A stretch of 13,454 nt of DNA, taken from contig JAIDMU010000243.1 in the NCBI GenBank assembly GCA_029050415.1, positions 1 through 13,454 of the forward strand. The letters are read 5' to 3'. This DNA is from Malacoplasma sp. GTDB taxonomy: Bacteria; Bacillota_I; Bacilli_A; Mycoplasmatales; Mycoplasmoidaceae. The position numbers and the translations under genes are program-made. Positions 6-13,454 of this stretch are shown piece after piece; within the stretch, counting starts at the first letter, position 1, and every line of letters begins with the position of its first letter. Under the pieces are notes generated by a model. That model made no database searches. It was not told the origin of the DNA and saw only the letters and a program-made list of their open reading frames with translations.

Positions 6-1634
6 TTATTTAACTGCTTTAAAGCAACTTTTTGTAATAGTTTTTTTAAAAAATAAGTCAGCATTATGACTATCTTTAGGAGTTTGCTTTTTCAAAACAA
101 AATAATTTATAGTAGGTAAAATAATTATTCATAAAAAGATAAGTCAAAACAAAATAGCATCATAACTTTTAAGCCAAACTTGACCATCTACATCATTTAA
201 TCCTTTACTATAAAACAAACCTGATGAACTCTTTAAATGACCATTAATTGCAACTTCATACATAAAATTGTAGAAAAAGGTATAGCAAAAGACAACAAGA
301 ATTAAAAGTGTTGAAAATATTGCAGCAAAAGTAAAACCAAATAATTGGTTTTTACATAATTTTTTTGTATATCTATCTTTAACTCCTAAAATCATAGTAT
401 ATCCATAAACCAAAAAGAAAACTAATGTTGGAGCATTAGTAGCACTATCAAAAATAGCATCATTATTCATAGCGATTGCTGGAACACCAAAAATAAACAT
501 ATAAAATAAATTTTGGATTAAATACAAAAACAAAGATCCCAAATTATCTTTTTTTGAATTCAACTTTTTAAATTGTTTATAAAACATTACTTCTTCAGCA
601 ATTATTAAACCTTCACAACTTTTTAATGATCCCATTGACAAAGCATTTACTACAAAAATTGCACTTAAACTAATAAAAACATTAATAATAATATCAACTG
701 CTTTTCTAGCAGTTTCAAATTCAGTTCCCTTTGGAAAAAGGGTTTGTAAAATTGTACCAACTGAACCCATCCCAGTTAAACCCGCACCTATTGAGATTAA
801 TATATATACAACTGCAGCAATAACAATTGTTAAAATAGCAATAATAGGAACTCTTTTTTCAGGTTTTTTCATATCTGTTGCCAAATTACCAATTGTTAAA
901 AAAGAATCAAAAGAAAATAAAATCCCTGGAAGAGCTGAAAACACACCTGTAATTTGAAAAAAATTTGTTGAAGGTATTGCATTAACACTAAGTCCGTTAG
1001 CACTATTAATCAAATTATCAGGATTAGTTGTATCAACAATGTCATTTGGATTATTTATTACATGAGATGAATTTGCTCCAATTAAACTAACTACAATAGC
1101 TAATAATAATGGAATTAATTTTGTAATTGTTCCCACTAATTGCAAGCGACTTGAAAATTTTAGTGCCAAATAATTTAAAGCTGTAATTGAAATAAAAACA
1201 ACAAATCCCCCTATAAAAATTCATCCAAAATGAATTGTAGTCCTCCCATTTATTGCACCATCAATTGCATAAAATAAACCTTCTAATGATATTATGGGTA
1301 AACACGAAACTAAAATTGAGTAATATACAGATGAATGAGTGAATTTAACAAATAATCCCTGTTTTCTACCACCTAAAACATCAACTCAACCAGCTAATCC
1401 ACTTTTACTTTGTTTACTTGTAGAAATTTGAGAAAAAGCATAAGCTGCAAAAAGTGAAATAATAGCAGCTAAAATTCATGAAGTAATTAAACCTCAAAAA
1501 CTAAAATTATCACCATCAGTTAAAGAAGCTATAACACTATTATTTTTTAAAAATATTCCAACCCCAATTACTGAACCTAGTGAAATTGATAAGGCTGATA
1601 AAAAACCTATTTTTTTAGCTTGTGCTAAATCCAT
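6..1634 (-). CDS. APC-superfamily amino acid permease
   Basis: Complete 542-aa integral membrane protein, probably importing amino acids across the plasma membrane; the substrate cannot be told. Near the N-terminus, residues 20-28 read GSVIGVGIF, the glycine-rich helix-1 signature of the APC superfamily. Residues 232-263 contain a helix-6-like segment ending in KKPEKRVP, which fits the conserved loop after TM6 of this family. I count about twelve hydrophobic segments, roughly at 10-30, 46-67, 100-124, 135-156, 165-186, 226-250, 262-290, 315-345, 370-395, 400-420, 435-460 and 493-515. A polar Asn-rich loop lies at about 187-225, and a basic tail follows the last helix. The ATG at 1634 has AAAAGGAA a few bases upstream; the stop is TAA at 6-8. 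Most Trp codons are UGA, with a UGG at VWLK. It lies downstream of the lipoprotein operon but beyond a terminator, with its own -10 element. Membership of the family is secure; specificity is not. Confidence 0.95.
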
Positions 1635-1744: not shown

Positions 1745-1789
1745 AATAAAAATTAAAATAAAGAAAAACATCAAAATGCTTTTCTTTAT
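1745..1789 (-). terminator. Rho-independent terminator of the lipoprotein operon
   Basis: On the minus strand, 1789-1777 and 1770-1758 form a 13-bp stem around a 6-base loop. One pair is a G-U wobble in this orientation; on the plus strand it would be an A-C mismatch. A T-rich run (TTTAATTTTTATT) follows at 1757-1745. The stem starts 26 bases after the TAG of lipoprotein gene A. Orientation and place mark the end of the operon and separate it from the permease. Confidence 0.8.
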
Positions 1790-1815: not shown

Positions 1816-4800
1816 CTAGTCAGTTGTATTTGTTAAATTAATATTTTTTCAATTACTTATTCAAATAATTCCATTTTGAGAAAAAGCATTATATGCTCTA
1901 ACATCATAAACTTCAATTCTGTTTTTGTTAACTATTTGAGGTAAAAAAGTTTCAGTATTTTTATTTGCAAATTGTACAATCAAGTTACAAATTATTTCAT
2001 TTGCAAACTTATAACTATTTTGATCGTTTTGTTTTGCACCCAAAGCTTTTTGTAAACTAGCAAAAGAAGAAAAATCATTATAACTTAATTGATATGCTAA
2101 TGTTCCATATTTAGTAACTGATGAACTAGAACTTGAATAAGCATTTATTACTGTTGTTGAATCACTATTTGTTTCTTCACCTACATAACCATCAAACTTA
2201 GTAAAATAATCAGATGGTAATGTTTCAACAATTTTAATTAATTCTTTTTTCTTTTCAGAAATCTTCAATAAATTATTTTCAATTAAAACAGAAAATGAAT
2301 AATTATAATTTGTCAAAGTATCTAAATTTGATGCTAGGTTTGATAAATTAGCAAAACTTGCAGTGTTATTAATTATTTTTATTAATGCTTCTTTATTGCT
2401 TGCTAAACTATATAAACAACCTTTTAGATTAATATTGTTGTTATATGTTTTTCTAAATAAAGCATCAGCAACATCAGAATCTAAACTATTATCATTATTT
2501 GTTTGCAACCCCATAAAACCCAATAAATTATTGCTAGTATTGTTAGGTGAAGAAGTGGCTAAAAAATAATTTGAATTTACTGTTGATTGATAAAAACTGT
2601 TAGTAATTATATTATTAGTTAAAGCAGAATTTGTAGTAGTTGTACTTGTACTGGCATTACCAACAACTGTATCAGCTTTACCAAAATAAGAACCAAAAAC
2701 TGAATTATTAATATTAGTGTAAATTTTTGATTTTTCTATATCAACTAAAGATTGAGAAGTAGGAGCTTGATTATTGGTATTTAAAATATCATTAGATGAA
2801 TTTTGTCAAACAACAAAAGCATTTTCATTAAGTAAAAAATCTTTCATATATTTTAAAAAATTTGAAAAATTATCTTCCATAAAGTATTTAACTACTGAAA
2901 CTAAATTATATAAAGTATTAAAATTACTAACTTTAGTTAAATACTCATTTTCATTTTGGTTATTTCATAAATCAAAACTATATTTTCTAATGCTTGTTAA
3001 AATATCATCTTTATTTGATTCAGCTGATTTTGTACTAGGTGTTGTTCCATAAGCAAACAATTTATTTGATTCATTTTGGTAATTTTGTATGAAAAAGAAA
3101 TTGTTAATTGCTGATTTTAAATAATCTTGCAAATCACTTACACTTGTATTATCTTCATTATTTGCAGTTTTAAAAGGATTATTTTTTAAATTAAAACTGT
3201 AATCACTAGTTGAATAAAAATCTCCTATATAATTTTCAAAAACAGAATTTTTAATTAATTTTGAAATAAAGTCACTGTCAGATAAAACATTAGTTAATGC
3301 ATAATTTACATAACTGTTTGTACAGTATAAATATTGAGAATATTTATCATATTCAGCTGGTTGTACAACCAGTGAATCAGTAACACTAGATAAAGCATTA
3401 ATTATTGTTGTGTATAAACTAGTGTTTGTTTTATTATTAGTGTTACTATTAACAGAACTATTGTGGTCTGTTTTAAAAGGATTGATACTTGTTGAAGAAA
3501 GAATTGCATTTTTATATAAAAAATTTTTATTTACTGAATAATAATCAGCTTGTGTGTCACTTGCATATTCATAATTATAATTTGAAGCTAATCCATTACT
3601 ATAAACACTATATCCATAATTTTGGTTATAAGTTTTTTTAGAATCATACATTTTTTCAGCAGCTGTTTTTGCTTTATCATAATATCCAACACTTGCTGAA
3701 AAATCAGAAATGGCTGTAGCTAAATTTTTATCTGATTGACTAGAATTTAATGTGTTTACATTAAACATTGTTTGATTAAAATTAGTACCATCAATCCCTT
3801 TATGACTACTTAGTAAAGCAAACTGATAAACTAACCAGTTAACATTAGTTTTGAAAAAATTTGAAAGTTCAGTTAATAAATCAACTGTAAAATTTTGATT
3901 TGAATATTTATTTAAAAAATATCTGTATAAAACTACAAAAGCAGAATTTAGTTTTTTTTGCTGAGTATTTGTACCTTTACTTATCAAACTATCACCATCT
4001 ATTGAAGCAGCATAAACACCATCTTGTGATCTAAAAAAAATAAATTTATTTAAAGAATTTTCATATTCATTTGAAGCATCTATTTTAATTTTACTTGGGA
4101 TAAAATTATCAATTACATAAACATTTTGACTCATCAAATCTTTTAAATTGCCATCATTGTTAACAATATTTTTCAAATAATCAGTTGATAATTGTAATGG
4201 ATTTATTTGATTAGCAGTATCATTACCAGAAGTTTGTGTATTATTATAAGGATTATTTTGATTAATAAAATTTGCAGAAATCAAATCTAAACCTTTATTA
4301 TCAGTAGCAGTTAAATCAATATTATGAGATATAGAACTATTTATATCAGTAAGTTGATTTGTATTTTTACCATACATATATGAAACAGCTGCAGCAAATT
4401 CAGTTCCTTCATCTGAAAATAAAGTACTATTTTTTATTAATTTTGAAGTAGTTACATTATCAGAATTAACTAAAGGAATTGACTTTATTCCTGTTTCTGA
4501 ATCAATTTCATAATTAGTTACATCTTTATTAGAACTACTATTTGTAAATTTACTTCCAGTCAAAAAATTAATGAATTTTGAAAGTGTTCCTTCAACTGTG
4601 TTTGTAGCATTTTCATTCCCAAAATAAGGAAAGGCATAGCTTCCAGCATTTGCTGATGTTTCAGTACCAGAATCCCCTGAATCACCACTAGTACCATCAT
4701 CAGTTGTAGTATCATCATAAAAATTCATATTTTTTTTCATTTTTAATGAAATTTTATTGCTACTTGTTGTAACTTCTGTAGGTGTAGTTTGTTCTCCTTC

Positions 4801-5667
4801 AGTTGGGTTTTGAGTATCATCTGGATTTTGAGCATTAGGATTTTCTGGTGTTTTGTATAAACTGTTTATTCCTAATGGGTCACTTGGAACAGAATAATTT
4901 CACTGAGCAAAATCTACAACATAGGGGTTTTCATATTCAGCATATTTTTGAAAAATAAAATCTTGAAAAGAAGCAAATTCAACATCAAGTCTTTGATTAG
5001 ATGAACTTAGTAAATCTATACGATTATCAAATTTAAACTTATAATCAGAACTTGTAGTAGTAGATGAATTAGCAGTATTTTTTAAAGCACTTAAAATAAT
5101 TTCTTCAGTTGGATTGTAATCAACATTTCCAGTTTTAGTATTATAAACTGATAAATATAAAGTAGAAAATAATTTATCTATAAAAGTTGATCTTGCAAAA
5201 CTATTCAACTTTTTTTGAATATAAGTATTTTTATTTCCACCATTTGGATCTAAAACTTCTTGTTGAAATTTCAATTCTCAATCATTACCATGTAAATTTT
5301 GATAATTTTTTATAGAATCATCATAATCAAAATTAATTTTTTCTTTTTCATTTTCTAGTAATACATTATATTCACTATTTCTTTGAGAAAGAGTAACTAA
5401 TCAATTATATAAAATTTCATCAACTACACCTTCAAAATATCATTGAAATCCACTTGATGTTTTTAATGATTCTTGTGCTATTTGAGAAAGTGAAAAATTA
5501 CTAGTGAAAGCACTACCAGTATTTGCTACTAAATATGAATTACTTATAAGACTTTGATTAACACCACTACAAGCTGTAACTGCAATTGGTACTGCTGTTA
5601 AACTTAAAAATAATCCATATTTAATTAGTTTATTTTTTTTAAATTTTTTATTAAATTTTAATTTCAT
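1816..5667 (-). CDS. Large surface lipoprotein, paralogue A
   Basis: Predicted 1283-aa lipoprotein of unknown function, exported and anchored on the outer face of the membrane. The N-terminus is Lys-rich (MKLKFNKKFKKNK), then a hydrophobic stretch and a lipobox AVTAC with Cys33 as the lipidated residue. Blocks shared with B and C, in order: LKFQQEVLD at 132-140; NPYVVDFAQW ending at W256; an acidic Gly/Ser/Thr-rich linker at about 318-340; PYFG at 347-350; VYVIDNFIP at 516-524; SIDGD near 555; NWLVYQ near 610; NYGYSVYSNGLAS near 683-695; KYSQY at 775-779; VVWQNS with W954; GFMGLQ at 1050-1055; GCLYSL at 1083-1088; VYDVR at 1253-1257. A GTG at 5676 is in frame, but it overlaps the Shine-Dalgarno AAAGGTG, so the ATG at 5667 is preferred. 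Eight Trp codons are UGA and one is UGG (NWLVYQ). Last gene of the operon, 28 bases after B, with a terminator downstream. Confidence 0.95.
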
Positions 5668-5673
5668 ATTTTT

Positions 5674-5680
5674 CACCTTT
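5674..5680 (-). promoter_or_regulatory. Ribosome binding site of lipoprotein gene A
   Basis: AAAGGTG on the minus strand, in the 28-base gap between genes B and A. The AGG core is eight bases before the ATG at 5667. Since this site contains the in-frame GTG at 5674-5676, it decides in favour of the ATG as start. Confidence 0.75.
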
Positions 5681-5695
5681 CACTTCATCAAAATT

Positions 5696-8600
5696 TTAAC
5701 TAGATTGATCTTTATAATTTAAAACTCATCTTGATCCTAATTGATTATTTAGTCTTATATCATAAACTGTTACTTTATTAGTTGAAGTAACATTTGAAAT
5801 AGCTGATGTTTGAATTGATGTATCTGTAGCCATTTGAACTACTAAATTTCAAAATAAATCATTTGCTTGTTTTTCACTATTTGCATTAGTTGTAGATGAT
5901 GTTGTTTGATTTGGATCATTAGTAGTAAAAGCAGTTTCTAAATAATCTAAAAATCCTGTTGCAGAAGTTAAATTATTTTCACTTAATTGAATAACATATG
6001 AAGCATATTTATATCCACTAATTTCATCAGATTCTTCAGAATATAAATCTTGGTTTACATAACCTTGTTTTGGTTTAAAAGCATCATCTTTAATTTTGTT
6101 ATTATCATTAATTATTGATATTAAATTTTGTTGCATTTGAGATAAATTGCTTGCATTTACTATATTTGAAATATCTAAATCAAATAATTTTTGAATATTA
6201 TTGGCTAATGCTAAAACTTGTGAAGAAGAATAATTTTTAACCATATTAACTAAATTTTCTCTTTTATCAGAAAAACCATATAATAATCCCTTCTGATCAG
6301 TTGGAAAATTTACAAATAAATTATTTTCTAAAGACTTAGTAATATTTTGAAAATTAGAGTTTGTTTGGATACCTTGAAAATTTATCATATCAGATACATG
6401 AGTATAGTATGAAGATAAATAACTATCATTAGCAAAAGCTGATCCTAATGTATCAACAACACTATAATCTGAATTAAGCGGATAATAAGCAGATCCTTGT
6501 GAATTGTTAACATTTGAATAAAGATTATCTTTTTGATAAAGTACTTCATTTGGTTTTTTGTTAGTAGTATCTTTTTGATTTTTTGTGTCAATACTTGTTT
6601 CTCAAACCAAAAATGATAAACGAGTATCTGCAGTTGAAAGTTTACTAGAAAGTTGTGAAAGAAAGACTTGACCATCATTTGCCATTAAATAATCAATTGT
6701 TGACAATAAAGTTAAAAAATTAACATAATTATCAGCAGGAATTGCATTCATTTCTATATTTTCTTTAATTCATAAATCTTTTCTATATTTATTTAAAACA
6801 TCATAAGATACAGTTGGTAAACTTGGTGAAGATGTTGATGGTGGTGTTGTAGTTGATGAATTATTAAAATCAAAACTCTGAGTTTGTTTTAAATCAATTC
6901 ATTTACTTGAACTATTTTGAAAATTTGAATTAAAAAAATAATTTGATAACGCACTATTAATGTATGAGCTAACATCATTATTATTAAACTGATAGTTATT
7001 TATGTCATATAATTGGGGAATTATATAATCATAACTACTTAAATTAAATTTTTCTTTTAATCCGCTTTGTAATAAAACATTTTTTTTAATTAAATCTGAT
7101 AATAGATTTCCATCATTACCAACAGCTAAAATTGCTTGGTTTATAAAAAAATCATTGGTATAAATGTATTGACTATATTTAAAACCATCAAAATCTGATT
7201 GTAAAGGTCCAAAAGATTTACTAGTTATATATAAATTAATATCACTATTTAATTTTTTATAAACTCCCCTTTCACCATAAGGATCATTTAAATCTATATC
7301 TTTTAAAGACTGATCATTTACACTAAAAGGATTATCTAATTTCAATGTATCTAAAGCAGTATAATGTCCAATTTCACCAACTTTATTTGTTTCTTGTTTA
7401 ACAGCAGCTGTAAAAGGGTATGGATACATTGCTGCTAGTCCATTAAACAGTGATTTTGTACCATAATTTGATGCTAAAGCAGATTTATCAGATACATCAT
7501 ATTTATTTTTTGTTTCAAAAAGGTTTGTTTCATAATTTTCCATTCTTTTATATCGACTACTAATATAAGCATAATTAGCTAGATCTTGTAGCACAATTAA
7601 AGCATTCTTATCACCATTAATAAAATTGAAGTCAAACAAACTTTGGTTTGTTTCTAATTGAGCATATTTAGTAATTAATCAATCACGATTTTCTTCAAAA
7701 AAAGTTTTTAGAGTTTGTTGTAAATCAATTGAAAATCCTGTATTTGCATTTGATTTGTTTTGTAAATAACGGTATAAAACAATATCTCCAGCCCTTTTTT
7801 TAGCTTCTATTAAATTGCTAGCTTTTGAAATGTAAATTTCACCATCCAAAGCAATAGCATAAACAGCAGCATCATCTCTTAAAAAAATAACATTACTTAA
7901 ATCACTATTATCTGTTGCAATAAATGCATCTATTACATACAACCCATTATTAGTATCATATTTTATTGATGAAGAATCACTACCACTACTAGTAGTAGTA
8001 CTTGCTAATTGTGAATAAGCATTTGAAGATAAAATTTGTTTTACTTGATTATCTTGAATTTGAGTATATGGAACATATGTTGTCTCACTAGAACTATCTG
8101 ATGTACCTGATAAATCTTTGTTTTTAAAAGATTCTTTATCAACACTAACAAAATTAGATGTTATTGAATCAAATGGCAAACCACTACTGCTATTAAACGG
8201 TTTACTAATTTTTTTTCTAATATCATTATTTACTTTTTTATCATTACTATATGCTGTACTAAATAAAAAAGTTGAAGCAAGTGATAAATTAGATGAATTA
8301 CTTGTATAAGTGTTAACATTATTAATTAATTTATAACTGCTTGAAGTATCAGCTGAAAAACCATATTTGTTCATATTAATTAATCCAATGCTTTCAGCAG
8401 CAGCATCATTTTCAAAAAAACCATTCCTAGCAGAATTTTTAAAATTATTAAATTTTTCAACATCTGAATAACTATCATTTGTTTTTGAACTACTAAAATA
8501 TGGAAATTTGTAATTTGCACTAACTGTTTGATTAACTGCATCTTTACCAATAGCATTTGGATTATAAATTGAATCTAATCCATCAACTGGATTTGAATAA

Positions 8601-9346
8601 TTTCATTGTGAATAACTAATCACAAAAGGATTTTCTGACTGAACTCACTGGTCATAAATAAATTGTTGAAAGTTTGCATATTCATTAGCAACATAATTAT
8701 CAATTTTACTATTATTAGTACCATTTTTATTAAATTTAAATGTGATATCTGAACTTTCAGTTAAAGCATTTTCAAGATTTGCTTTAGTAGCAGGAACAAA
8801 ATTATCATTTTTGTCAACTAAAGAAAGATAAAAATTTGTAAATAAATCAGATGCAAATGTAGAACTTGCTCATTCTAGTCATTTTTGCTTTTTTCAAGCA
8901 TCTTCATTTCCACCATTAACATCTAATTCATCTTGCTGAAATTTTAATAAAAAATCATTGCCATTAGAATTTTTTGATGAATCATAAGCATTGTTATAAT
9001 CATCATTAATTTTGTTTTTTTGAGTTTCTCAAAGTCTATTATAACCATCTTTGTTATTTGATAAGTCATTATTAGTTGCAAGTTTTAAATATCACTGATA
9101 AATTGCTTGATTATTAAGTTGATTGTGTCATTTTTTAGAACCTGTTGAAGTTGTTAAAGAATATTTAGCTAAATCAGATAAATTTAAATTATTTGTTAAT
9201 TGTAATCCATTCCCTTTAGAAACTAAATTATCTAATAAAGTTGAAGAAACTTGAGCAGAACAAGATGCTAAAACAGTTGGAACTACAGTTATTGTTCCAA
9301 GAGATAAAACTAAAGGTAAAAATTTTTTTAATCTTTTTTTGTTCAT
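5696..9346 (-). CDS. Large surface lipoprotein, paralogue B
   Basis: Predicted 1216-aa lipoprotein of unknown function, the shortest of the three. The signal peptide MNKKRLKKFLPLVL... ends in the lipobox VLASC with Cys29. Blocks shared with A and C, in order: LKFQQDELD at 134-142; NPFVISYSQW ending at W248; FPYF at 281-284; LYVIDAFIA at 469-477; ALDGEIYIS near 499-507; DWLITKY with W556; NYGTKSLFNGLA at 627-638; KYSQY at 723-727; LVWETS with W915; GIQTN near 992-996; GLLYGF at 1020-1025; VYDIR at 1194-1198. Between the W248 block and FPYF it lacks the long acidic linker of A and C, which accounts for part of its shorter length. I found 14 Trp codons, all UGA, and no UGG. The ATG at 9346 follows AAGGAGAA; an in-frame TTG at 9367 lies upstream of that site and is not favoured. 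Middle gene of the operon, 23 bases after C. The stop is TAA at 5696-5698. Confidence 0.95.
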
Positions 9347-9350
9347 TTTC

Positions 9351-9358
9351 TTCTCCTT
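9351..9358 (-). promoter_or_regulatory. Ribosome binding site of lipoprotein gene B
   Basis: AAGGAGAA on the minus strand in the 23-base gap between genes C and B, with AGGAG six bases before the ATG at 9346. This is the strongest Shine-Dalgarno sequence in the window and fixes the start of gene B. Confidence 0.85.
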
Positions 9359-9369
9359 ATTAAACAACT

Positions 9370-12300
9370 TTATACAGTAGGTGTAGGTTGTGTTTCAGTA
9401 CCTAAAGAATCACTACCACTACTGCTGTTAGATGAAATTGGATTAGTTACTTTTCAATCCAATATCCATTCAACTCCTAAAAATACATAAAGTCTAACAT
9501 CATATGCTTTTATTTTTCCTACACTTGCCAAAATTGAATTCATTATCCTATCTTGTAAATTTGAATCAATTGCTTGTTGAATAACTAAATTACTCAATAT
9601 ATCAAAAGCACCTTCATTATCTGAATTACTTTCTGTTGTATTAACAGATAAAGCATCTAATAAACTGTTACTTGATGATAAATTATATCTGCTTAATTGA
9701 ATTACATATGAAGCAAATTGTAGCAATGGTTGCGATGAATCAGATAATAAACCATTATTATTAGTTTCTGTGAAGTATCCTTCATTTAAAATACCTGCTC
9801 TTTGTGAAAAAACCTTAGTAGAACTTAAACTAGAACTTAAATTAGTAACTGCTGTAATTAATTTATTCTTTTTTTCTTTCAAAGTTATTGTTTTATTTTC
9901 AGCAACTTCTTTTAATTGATTTTGTTTCAATTTAGAAGCTAAATCATTTGCAATATTATTAATACCATCAACTGTTTGAGTATTTTGAATAACTTTAATA
10001 ACAGTTTCTAAGTCAGATCCATAACCATATAAAATTCCAACTAAATCTTTATTATCAAGTGTTGGTGAAGAAAATAATCTATTAGAAACAATTGAATTTA
10101 AACTATTTGAACTATTTTTTTGTAAACCTAAAAAACCAGACATATTATTGCTGATTGAATAATATGCAGGCACTGTGGTTGAATCTTGATATGAAGAATG
10201 AATTCCTATATTTGGATTAGAACTATTAGTTCAAGTAGAATTAATTAATTCTTCTTGATAAGTTATAGTAAGTGGAGCTTTAGTTTGATTAGAATCTTGA
10301 TTAGTTACTTTATAACCACCAATATATGATGAAAAATAACTATTATTAATATTTCTATTAATTGTTTTAGCAGACATTAATGCACTTGCTGAATTATTTT
10401 GATCAGTTGTTTTCTGTAATGCTTTATTTTCAGAATTTTGTCAAGCAACATAAGCATCTTCACCATTACTAATTAATGAAGACATTTGATTTAAAAAGAA
10501 ATCAAAATTATTTTCTACCATAAATTTAGTTGTAGCTACAGTTGTGTATAATTTTAAATAATTTTCAATTGCAGTTGAAGATAAAACTGCATTTTCTGAC
10601 TTTCATAATTTAACTTTATAATTTTGTAAAATTTCATTTAAATCAGTATTATCAGTACTAGTAGTAATTTTAGTATCCCATTTTTTACTTTCTTCATCAC
10701 CTAACTTCAATCATTTAATTTGCACATTATCAAATGAACTATTAAAGAAAAAATTTGATAAAGCATAATTTAAATATTTAGAAATATCTACAGTTTTTGA
10801 ACTATAAGAAACATTTAAAGCACTAAACTTTAAAGTATCAAAATTAAAAAAATCACCAATATATTTTTTTAAATAATTAATTTTGCTTAAATTAGGTAAA
10901 TTGCTTCCTTCATTAGAATAAGCTAATAAAGCAGCATTAACATAACTAGAATTTGAATAAATAAATTGTGAATACTTAAAACCTTCAAAACCTGAATTTA
11001 ATGTTTGCAATTCATTTGCTAAAGCTTGTAAATTTGAATCTAAAATTATTGAACTAGTAAAATTTGATCCATCATAATTTTTTTGTTCATTAGTTTCAGA
11101 AAAAGGATTTAGTGTTGAACTAACTGTTGCAGCAATTTGAAATGAGATATTTTTATTAGAATCATAAGTTTTTGCATCATTATCTGAAAAACTACTATAA
11201 ATTCAAGGTGCTGCTAAACCATTTTCATAAACACTAGTACCATAATTTGCACTATATGTATTTTTTCCATTAATTAATGCTTCATTATATTCATCAACTT
11301 TTTTATAAAAACTAATTTCATGTAAAAAATTATTTATAGCATTTGCAGCATTTTTCTCATTATCAGTTAAATTTAAATCATTAAGATTAAATAAAATGTT
11401 GTCAGTTTTTGTTGATGCATACAAATAAATTAATCAACTAACATTATTTTCATAAAAAGTTTTCAGTTCAGTTTGTAAATTTACATCAAAAGAATAAGAA
11501 GAATCTTTTGCATTTAATGTATTATATAAAGATCTAAATAAAACAATTTGACCAGCTCTTTTCTTTTTTTCACTAGCTGATAAAGTCGAAGTTGCTGTAG
11601 TTGAACCATTAATATAATTATATCCATCAATTGTAATTGCATGAACTCCAGCAGAGTTTCTCAATAACATATAATTAGATAAGTTATTATTTTTTGGGAT
11701 AAAAGAATCAATAACATATAAATCTTTATCTCTTAATTTACTAATATCTCCATTTTGATTAATAACTTTGTTTACATATGATTTATCCAATTTTATTTGA
11801 TATTGATCACCATCACTAAAGATTGAACTAGTAGAAATAAATTCATTTGAAATTGTATCTAATCCAGTTGTAGCATCATTGTTTATTGATATGCTATTTG
11901 ATAAATCTTTTTGAATTTTTGTATCAATATTTGGTATTCCACTATTATTACTTGTAGTTGAAGAATTATTTTTAAAATTAACATCAGTTGTCACATTTGA
12001 ATTTCTTCAAAACAAATAACTTGAAGCAGCAGCAAATTCTATATATAAATCAGAATATATAGAATTATTTTTTGCAAGAATAAAAGTTGAACTGTCATCT
12101 GTATAACTAGTTGGAATGTACAACAAACCATATCCATTTATATCATAACTTGACTTAAATGGAATTTTAGTATTAGAAGCTGTTGTTGTAGAACTAGAAT
12201 CAGTTGGTAATTTAATAGTTGAATCAGTTGCAGAATTAGCTTGATTTATAAAACTTACAAATTTAGAAACTGTACCACTTGTTGAACCTATTGCATCATT

Positions 12301-13314
12301 ACCAAAATATGGATATATATAACTTGCTGCAGCAGCTGATGTAGTTGTTCCACCACTATCACCACCCTCTTCATTATTTCCACTATCATCAGGGTTGGCA
12401 ACATCTTCTTTATATTTTATAACAGTATTATTTTTAGCACTTTGTAAATTAGAACTTGTTGCAATATCAGTTGGAGCAGAAGGATTATTAGTTGATTCAT
12501 CAGGATTTTGCGTAGTAACAGTACTTGATGCATTTGTATATAAAGAACCCAAACCTTGAGGAGGGGTACCATATTTTCAAAGTGACATATCAACAACATA
12601 TGGATTAACAATTTGAACATATTGTTCTCAAACAAATTGCATAAAATCTGCATAAGTTTTGTCTATAACATCATTTGATAATGTTGAAGAATCATTAACA
12701 GTGGGAAAACCAAAAATTAAATTTTGTTTTTCTAAAGCATTATAAACATCTACAACATTAGCATTACTAATGTTTGAAGGATTTACAATTGTTCCATCAT
12801 CTTTTTTATAAGTTAAATAACTTTTATTAAATAAATATGTTTCAAACTGTGCAGTTGCTCAAGAATTTCATTGACTTTGTTTATAAGATTGTTCACTACC
12901 ACCTGAACCATCTAAAACTTCTTGTTGAAATTTTAAAGCCCAGTCATTCTTATATTGTGTTTGATATTTTTTTACTAAATCTTTATAGTTATCTTCTATT
13001 AATTTATTTTGATTAATAAATGAATTTTTAAAATTAATATTTGTTGTTTTACTTAACTTTTCTAGTCATTTAAAAATTAACTGATTAGTAATTTCACTTA
13101 AATAAGCTTTCATTCCAGTATCGCTTTTTAAAGATGAAAAAACATAATCTTTTAAACTAGTATTATTATCAAGAAAAGTACCTGTATCTTTATAAACTGT
13201 TTTGTCAAAAAAATTTGTTTGAGCAGAACAAGATGCTAAAAAAACTGGTAAAATACCAAAAAGTGATATTACAGAAAACTTTCAAATTTTTTTATTCTTT
13301 TTAACTTTTCTCAT
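9370..13314 (-). CDS. Large surface lipoprotein, paralogue C
   Basis: Predicted 1314-aa lipoprotein of unknown function, first gene of the operon. The signal peptide begins MRKVKKNKKIWKF and ends in the lipobox FLASC with Cys29. Blocks shared with A and B, in order: NDWALKFQQEVLD around 123-135; NPYVVDMSLW ending at W246; an acidic Gly-rich linker at about 308-322; PYFG at 335-338; LYVIDSFIP at 532-540; TIDGY near 563; SWLIY with W627; NYGTSVYENGLA at 690-701; KYSQF at 780-784; VAWQNS with W958; GFLGLQ near 1060; GILYGY at 1093-1098; AYDVR at 1270-1274. It carries a Ser/Gly/Thr/Pro-rich tail after the last block that A and B lack. The ATG at 13314 has only a weak Shine-Dalgarno; an in-frame GTG at 13327-13329 would add five residues. 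At least three Trp codons are UGG, the rest UGA. The stop is TAA at 9370-9372. Confidence 0.94.
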
Positions 13315-13343: not shown

Positions 13344-13352
13344 ATTATAACA
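13344..13352 (-). promoter_or_regulatory. Putative extended -10 promoter of the lipoprotein operon
   Basis: TGTTATAAT on the minus strand is a perfect extended -10 (TGn plus TATAAT). A weak -35 candidate, TTAATC, lies 18 bases upstream at 13368-13373. Transcription would start near 13337, giving a leader of about 20 bases before the ATG of gene C. It is the best promoter-like sequence in the window and precedes the first gene of the operon. Confidence 0.65.
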
Positions 13353-13454
13353 ATTTATTTTAAGCAGGATTAAGATAATTAATAACTAATCTTTTTAATT
13401 TTTATTTTTAAATTTTGTATATTATCATACTACCAAAGTCTTTTTGTTTCACTT
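13353..13454. other. AT-rich intergenic region upstream of the lipoprotein operon
   Basis: Very AT-rich. The part nearest the promoter holds only the weak -35 candidate. The distal end (about 13420-13454) may hold the last codons of a neighbouring minus-strand gene, since short frames run to TAA or TAG there, but too little is present to choose a frame. No convincing hairpin terminator is visible. Confidence 0.5.

What the first reader, a model, noticed from the sequence alone, without database searches (positions are those of the whole stretch)
1816..13314. Operon of three giant paralogous lipoproteins of unknown function
Three lipoproteins of 1216-1314 aa lie in one tight operon and together take up most of the window. 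They share block order but little sequence between blocks. Retaining three diverged copies side by side suggests distinct jobs, a hetero-oligomeric surface complex, or antigenic diversification. This is the strongest candidate for an undescribed system here.
Basis: partly seen in the sequence, partly recalled or inferred. Interest (0 to 1): 0.7.

Follow-up and report, generated by a model that had tools for sequence, protein, structure and literature searches.

The report
Triplet of mycoplasma surface folding enzymes
Three big lipoproteins in a Malacoplasma genome are relatives of Mpn444, a ring-forming surface protein of Mycoplasma pneumoniae labelled as a protein-folding enzyme, and only one of the three keeps the family's typical enzyme-site residues, which suggests a division of labour.

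Summary

What looks new is a division of labour. Each operon position forms its own clade in conserved order. Gene1 keeps 96% of family-conserved residues in the PPIase-like segment, gene2 63%, gene3 79%. A parvulin-like His558 is kept in 6 of 6 gene1 and 0 of 14 gene2/gene3 sequences. Orthologues of all three show dN/dS of 0.12-0.24. In the window's subclade secY has left the ribosomal spc operon and lies directly upstream of gene1 in both relatives whose contigs span the join; its apparent last codons are at the window edge. Whether the three form one mixed ring or three homotrimers is undecided.

The parts
13430..13453 (-). probable last seven codons and stop of secY (SETKRLW*), cut by the contig end
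   Evidence: translation of the window edge; same residues end SecY directly upstream of gene1 in G007, and near-identical ones in G004. Only 24 nt, so it rests on synteny as well; G000 has no other SecY match
13344..13349 (-). TATAAT, putative -10 box of the operon
   Evidence: read; lies in a stretch conserved in G004 and G007
9370..13314 (-). gene1, 1314-aa DUF3713 lipoprotein that keeps the family's PPIase-segment residues (alternative GTG start 13329)
11617..12603 (-). gene1 residues 238-566, PPIase-like segment with a large low-complexity insertion
   Evidence: 242 of 252 family-conserved cells kept in six gene1 orthologues; part of it superposes weakly on SurA 285-385
11641..11643 (-). 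codon of gene1 His558 in the motif AGVHAITIDG
   Evidence: His in 6 of 6 gene1 orthologues
5696..9346 (-). gene2, 1216-aa DUF3713 lipoprotein with a degenerate PPIase-like segment
7859..7861 (-). gene2 codon aligned with His558 (Tyr)
   Evidence: Tyr in 7 of 7 gene2 sequences
1816..5667 (-). gene3, 1283-aa DUF3713 lipoprotein that lacks the pocket-type residues
   Evidence: PF12506 551 bits; not modelled
4012..4014 (-). gene3 codon aligned with His558 (Tyr)
   Evidence: Tyr, Ser or Glu in the 7 gene3 sequences, never His
1758..1789 (-). A+T-rich hairpin, putative terminator after gene3
   Evidence: fold -13.4 kcal/mol against -6.9 in shuffles, z -3.37

Best explanation
The three genes encode giant, membrane-anchored extracytoplasmic foldases of the DUF3713/Mpn444 family. 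The lipid anchor holds them on the outer face of the membrane, where they receive chains leaving the Sec translocon; a PrsA-like helical N-domain and a parvulin-like PPIase-type domain with large insertions, continued by a big C-terminal part, help those chains fold. After triplication gene1 kept the ancestral PPIase-type site, while gene2 and gene3 lost the same strand residues and the site His and probably serve as client-binding or structural paralogues. Shown: family membership, fold (gene2 whole, gene1 N-half), ordered orthologous triplets, residue loss, purifying selection, secY displacement. Inferred: foldase activity (from PDB titles of a distant relative), Sec coupling, loss of catalysis in gene2 and gene3, assembly.
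Confidence: 0.65

Rival explanations
1. One mixed ring: gene1, gene2 and gene3 products assemble 1:1:1 into the Mpn444-type trimer, with one conserved PPIase-type site and two degenerate ones that bind clients or shape the ring.
For: Mpn444 is trimeric. Of 22 genomes with the family, 13 hold three copies and one holds six, in G001 as two complete triplets in the order 1-2-3-1-2-3. Order and phylogenetic identity of positions are conserved.
Against: Mpn444 is deposited as a homotrimer, although M. pneumoniae has three Family 3 lipoproteins (MPN436, MPN444, MPN489; passages of PMC2515320; I did not test that the other two are DUF3713). Seven of the 22 genomes have a single copy and one has two. 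G001 copy a has a gene2 with an in-frame TAA. No complex could be modelled here.
Confidence: 0.3
2. Three separate homotrimers, each specialised for different exported clients; gene2 and gene3 are holdases without isomerase activity.
For: Homotrimer precedent; single-copy genomes exist, so one protein can suffice; orthologues of all three are under similar purifying selection.
Against: Conserved order, tight spacing and duplication as a whole triplet suggest matched dosage.
Confidence: 0.45
3. Variable surface antigens or adhesins kept as three copies for immune evasion.
For: Surface lipoproteins; linker around gene1 275-340 is variable (window against G004: 65% in gene1, 40% in gene3).
Against: dN/dS 0.12-0.24 in nine comparisons; positions stay orthologous; G004 and G007 sit in the same order; fold matches Mpn444. 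The permease control is more constrained (0.073), so the genes do evolve faster than that one.
Confidence: 0.07
4. The degeneracy of gene2 and gene3 is neutral decay without function.
For: PPIase-segment residues lost.
Against: Frames intact in the window, G002 (gene2, gene3), G004, G007, G009 and one G001 copy, with dN/dS well under 1; conserved residues outside the segment kept at 86% in gene2 and 79% in gene3.
Confidence: 0.05

Closest known systems
Mpn444 of Mycoplasma pneumoniae (PDB 9gn0, 9gnh, 9qgq; Pfam DUF3713, PF12506)
   Same: Full-length profile match, same overall fold, lipoprotein, residues around His558 (Mpn444 reads ...GIHLMAVDGG).
   Different: About 19% identity. Here three tandem paralogues, two of them without the site His, in a subclade where secY lies upstream.
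PrsA foldases of Firmicutes and SurA
   Same: Extracytoplasmic; helical N-domain; weak structural matches to the N-domain and, for SurA, to a parvulin domain.
   Different: Four to five times larger, no Rotamase model match, large insertions, trimeric precedent; membership not claimed.
M. pneumoniae lipoprotein Family 3 (MPN436, MPN444, MPN489)
   Same: Three paralogues that include Mpn444 (passages of PMC2515320).
   Different: By their numbers not adjacent genes; their domain content was not tested here.

Membership tests
DUF3713 / Mpn444 family | full-length match to PF12506 above the curated cut-off (27.2 bits) | tested here: met
   610, 485 and 551 bits, profile 6-1143, 1-1144 and 10-1138 of 1144
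DUF3713 / Mpn444 family | Mpn444 fold | tested here: met
DUF3713 / Mpn444 family | homotrimeric assembly | not testable with these tools
   single chains only could be modelled
DUF3713 / Mpn444 family | PPIase activity (label of 9qgq) | not testable with these tools
   needs an enzyme assay
PrsA / parvulin family | match to a Rotamase (parvulin) Pfam model | tested here: not met
   no Rotamase family listed at E <= 1 for any of the three
PrsA / parvulin family | parvulin fold with PrsA/SurA-type N-domain | tested here: inconclusive
PrsA / parvulin family | active-site His in the last strand | tested here: inconclusive
   gene1 has AGVHAITIDG; hhalign pairs it with SurA SFGWHLIEL but P is 0.15; equivalence to the catalytic His is recalled, not shown
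Variable surface antigen | diversifying selection on the whole protein | tested here: not met
   dN/dS 0.12-0.24
Variable surface antigen | phase-variable repeats or promoters | not tested
   no repeat search was run

The most novel reading that the evidence does not exclude
A hetero-oligomeric extracytoplasmic foldase ring with one conserved PPIase-type subunit and two pseudo-enzyme subunits, encoded right behind the relocated gene of the translocon channel, so that export and folding genes form one neighbourhood.
Probability: 0.25. Interest if true: 0.7.

Novelty: new variant of a known kind. Interest (0 to 1): 0.45.

Why it matters
Wall-less mycoplasmas export many surface proteins, and none of the 39 genomes examined here matched a classical parvulin model. 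If DUF3713 proteins are the folding machinery outside the cell, a 'domain of unknown function' becomes a core cell-biology component, and these triplets offer a natural test of what the PPIase site is for: two paralogues have apparently lost it, yet are kept under selection.

Tried and rejected
Tried without result: NCBIfam matched none of the three. Gene1 alone against PDB sequences gave nothing at E <= 1, and P0047 alone gave only 19 chance-level hits; only profiles reach Mpn444. The genome-contig scan found two loci, both from near relatives. hhalign against E. coli SurA and PpiC parvulin domains was not significant, and the N-domain against SurA and PpiD neither (PpiD gave no parvulin piece by my pattern). 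Promoter and terminator scans were at chance. No paper on Mpn444 as a PPIase turned up in nine searches of the held library; most subscription papers and all preprints are outside it.

Considered and rejected: gene2 and gene3 as neutral relics; antigenic variation as the main role; a shared ancestor of gene2 and gene3 as the one explanation of their shared losses is neither shown nor excluded (AU p 0.314; gene1+gene2 p 0.08). Between-paralogue dN/dS (0.81-1.0) is near saturation and was not used. The count of 11 columns lost in both gene2 and gene3 used four outgroup rows that I picked knowing that they carry the His, so I rely instead; its reference of 24 rows leaves out 38 rows listed there as dropped (distant family members and rows close to the window's clade).

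Full report
What is there. The window is contig C161 of a 942-kb, 261-contig genome. Gene2 is identical to a protein that NCBI names from a Malacoplasma sp. MAG (P0014, 100%). Under code 4 three intact lipoprotein genes run on the minus strand with gaps of 23 and 28 nt, followed by a hairpin and an APC-type amino-acid permease at 6-1634.

Family. All three match PF12506 (DUF3713) end to end at 485-610 bits; NCBIfam has nothing. A 46-row family profile (three window proteins and 43 of the 47 proteins found) matches the two PDB sequences of M. pneumoniae Mpn444 at E 9.4e-75 and 1.4e-70; the next hits, from E 0.22, are chance-level. The entries are titled 'CryoEM structure of essential Mycoplasma pneumoniae lipoprotein Mpn444' (9gn0) and 'Homotrimer of the extracellular PPIase Mpn444' (9qgq). 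In the one text passage that I saw on it, DUF3713 has no known function (PMC12323609).

Distribution. Of 39 genomes, 22 carry the family: 22 of 24 in the window's own family (the two without it are 77-78% complete), 0 of 15 outside it, 0 of 14 controls. Copy number: three in 13, six in one, two in one, one in seven (I count the two matches of G012 in one frame as one gene). Canonical parvulin models match 0 of 39 of these genomes and 8 of 14 controls in each of two searches.

Three old paralogues. In a tree of 49 proteins the positions of the window's clade form three fully supported groups of 6, 7 and 7 rows in the same order; a second, slower tree of 27 rows agrees. Triplets of G5, G6 and G8 group by position too, but their relation to the window's positions is unresolved. 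G001 has two whole triplets in a row; in one of them gene2 carries an in-frame TAA. Orthologues show dN/dS 0.115-0.235 in nine comparisons, against 0.073 for the permease in one.

Division of labour. Against 117 columns conserved in at least 80% of 24 reference rows from outside the clade, six gene1 orthologues keep 242 of 252 cells in the PPIase-like segment (gene1 238-566) and 380 of 450 elsewhere; gene2 keeps 160 of 252 and 388 of 450; gene3 231 of 294 and 417 of 525. For the window's gene2 alone the segment's deficit has Fisher p 0.004; for gene3 0.70; for gene1 0.99. So gene2's segment is broadly degenerate, while gene3 lost only chosen positions. Lost in both are M243, L245, K247 and H558, and I412, A414 and Y424 by the other set. 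M243, L245 and K247, and I412 and A414, alternate along strands, so they should lie on one face, while W246 and Y248 on the other face stay in all three. His558 sits in AGVHAITIDG, which resembles the last parvulin strand (recalled; hhalign aligns it with SurA SFGWHLIEL, P 0.15). It is His in 6 of 6 gene1, Tyr in 7 of 7 gene2, and Tyr, Ser or Glu in 7 of 7 gene3 sequences. In G5, G6 and G8 positions 2 and 3 are His in 6 of 6, position 1 is Arg, Arg, His. Reciprocal control: columns kept in gene2 and outgroups but lost in the other two number 3 of 99, for gene3 1 of 86, for gene1 11 of 132, with outgroup rows that I had picked knowing their His.

Sec neighbourhood. In G004 and G007 SecY lies directly upstream of gene1 (Pfam for G004; search), and it is the one SecY match in each. 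In G002 it ends 50 bases before a contig end, behind the same dnaQ-like gene; its triplet lies on another contig whose gene1 is cut. In the window the last 24 nt before the contig edge read SETKRLW*, the end of SecY in G007; G000 has no SecY match elsewhere. In all four genomes the spc operon runs L15-Adk without SecY, while G001 and G003 have L15-SecY-Adk, and SecY follows an L15-like gene in G005, G008, G009 and G010 (read by eye); G006 was not examined. Downstream, trigger factor follows the permease in G004 and lies beside the triplets in G001; in G008 it lies elsewhere, in G006 on another contig, and in G009 at the far end of the same contig. A Lon-like gene follows it (by eye).

Mechanism. 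Most likely the lipoproteins sit outside the membrane near the translocon and act as foldases, with gene1 as the isomerase-type member and gene2/gene3 as diverged partners or separate holdases. The family and fold are shown; the activity is borrowed from a PDB title; Sec coupling and pseudo-enzyme status are inferred. Homotrimeric Mpn444 and single-copy genomes speak against an obligate mixed ring; ordered triplets and copy numbers of three speak for it.

Noticed in passing
L039:3938-7684: In one of two G001 triplets gene2 is split by an in-frame TAA; probably a decaying copy or a sequencing error.
   Followed up: no
L053, L054, L055, L056, L057: Single-copy DUF3713 genes of five more distant genomes stand divergently beside what look by eye like suf (iron-sulphur cluster) genes; no family search was run.
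   Followed up: no
L048 4313-11488 and L049 4428-11698: In G013 and G022 two adjacent DUF3713 genes lie between what look by eye like lysS and a DJ-1-type gene.
   Followed up: no
window 12300-12500 (gene1 linker, about residues 275-340): Low-complexity Ser/Thr/Gly/Asp linker inside the PPIase-like segment, pLDDT under 50 and variable between relatives.
   Followed up: partly
L042:14802-17690: A 962-aa protein near the G009 triplet with no Pfam match at E <= 0.01.
   Followed up: no
window 6-1634: APC-type permease after a hairpin; its G004 orthologue is followed by trigger factor.
   Followed up: partly
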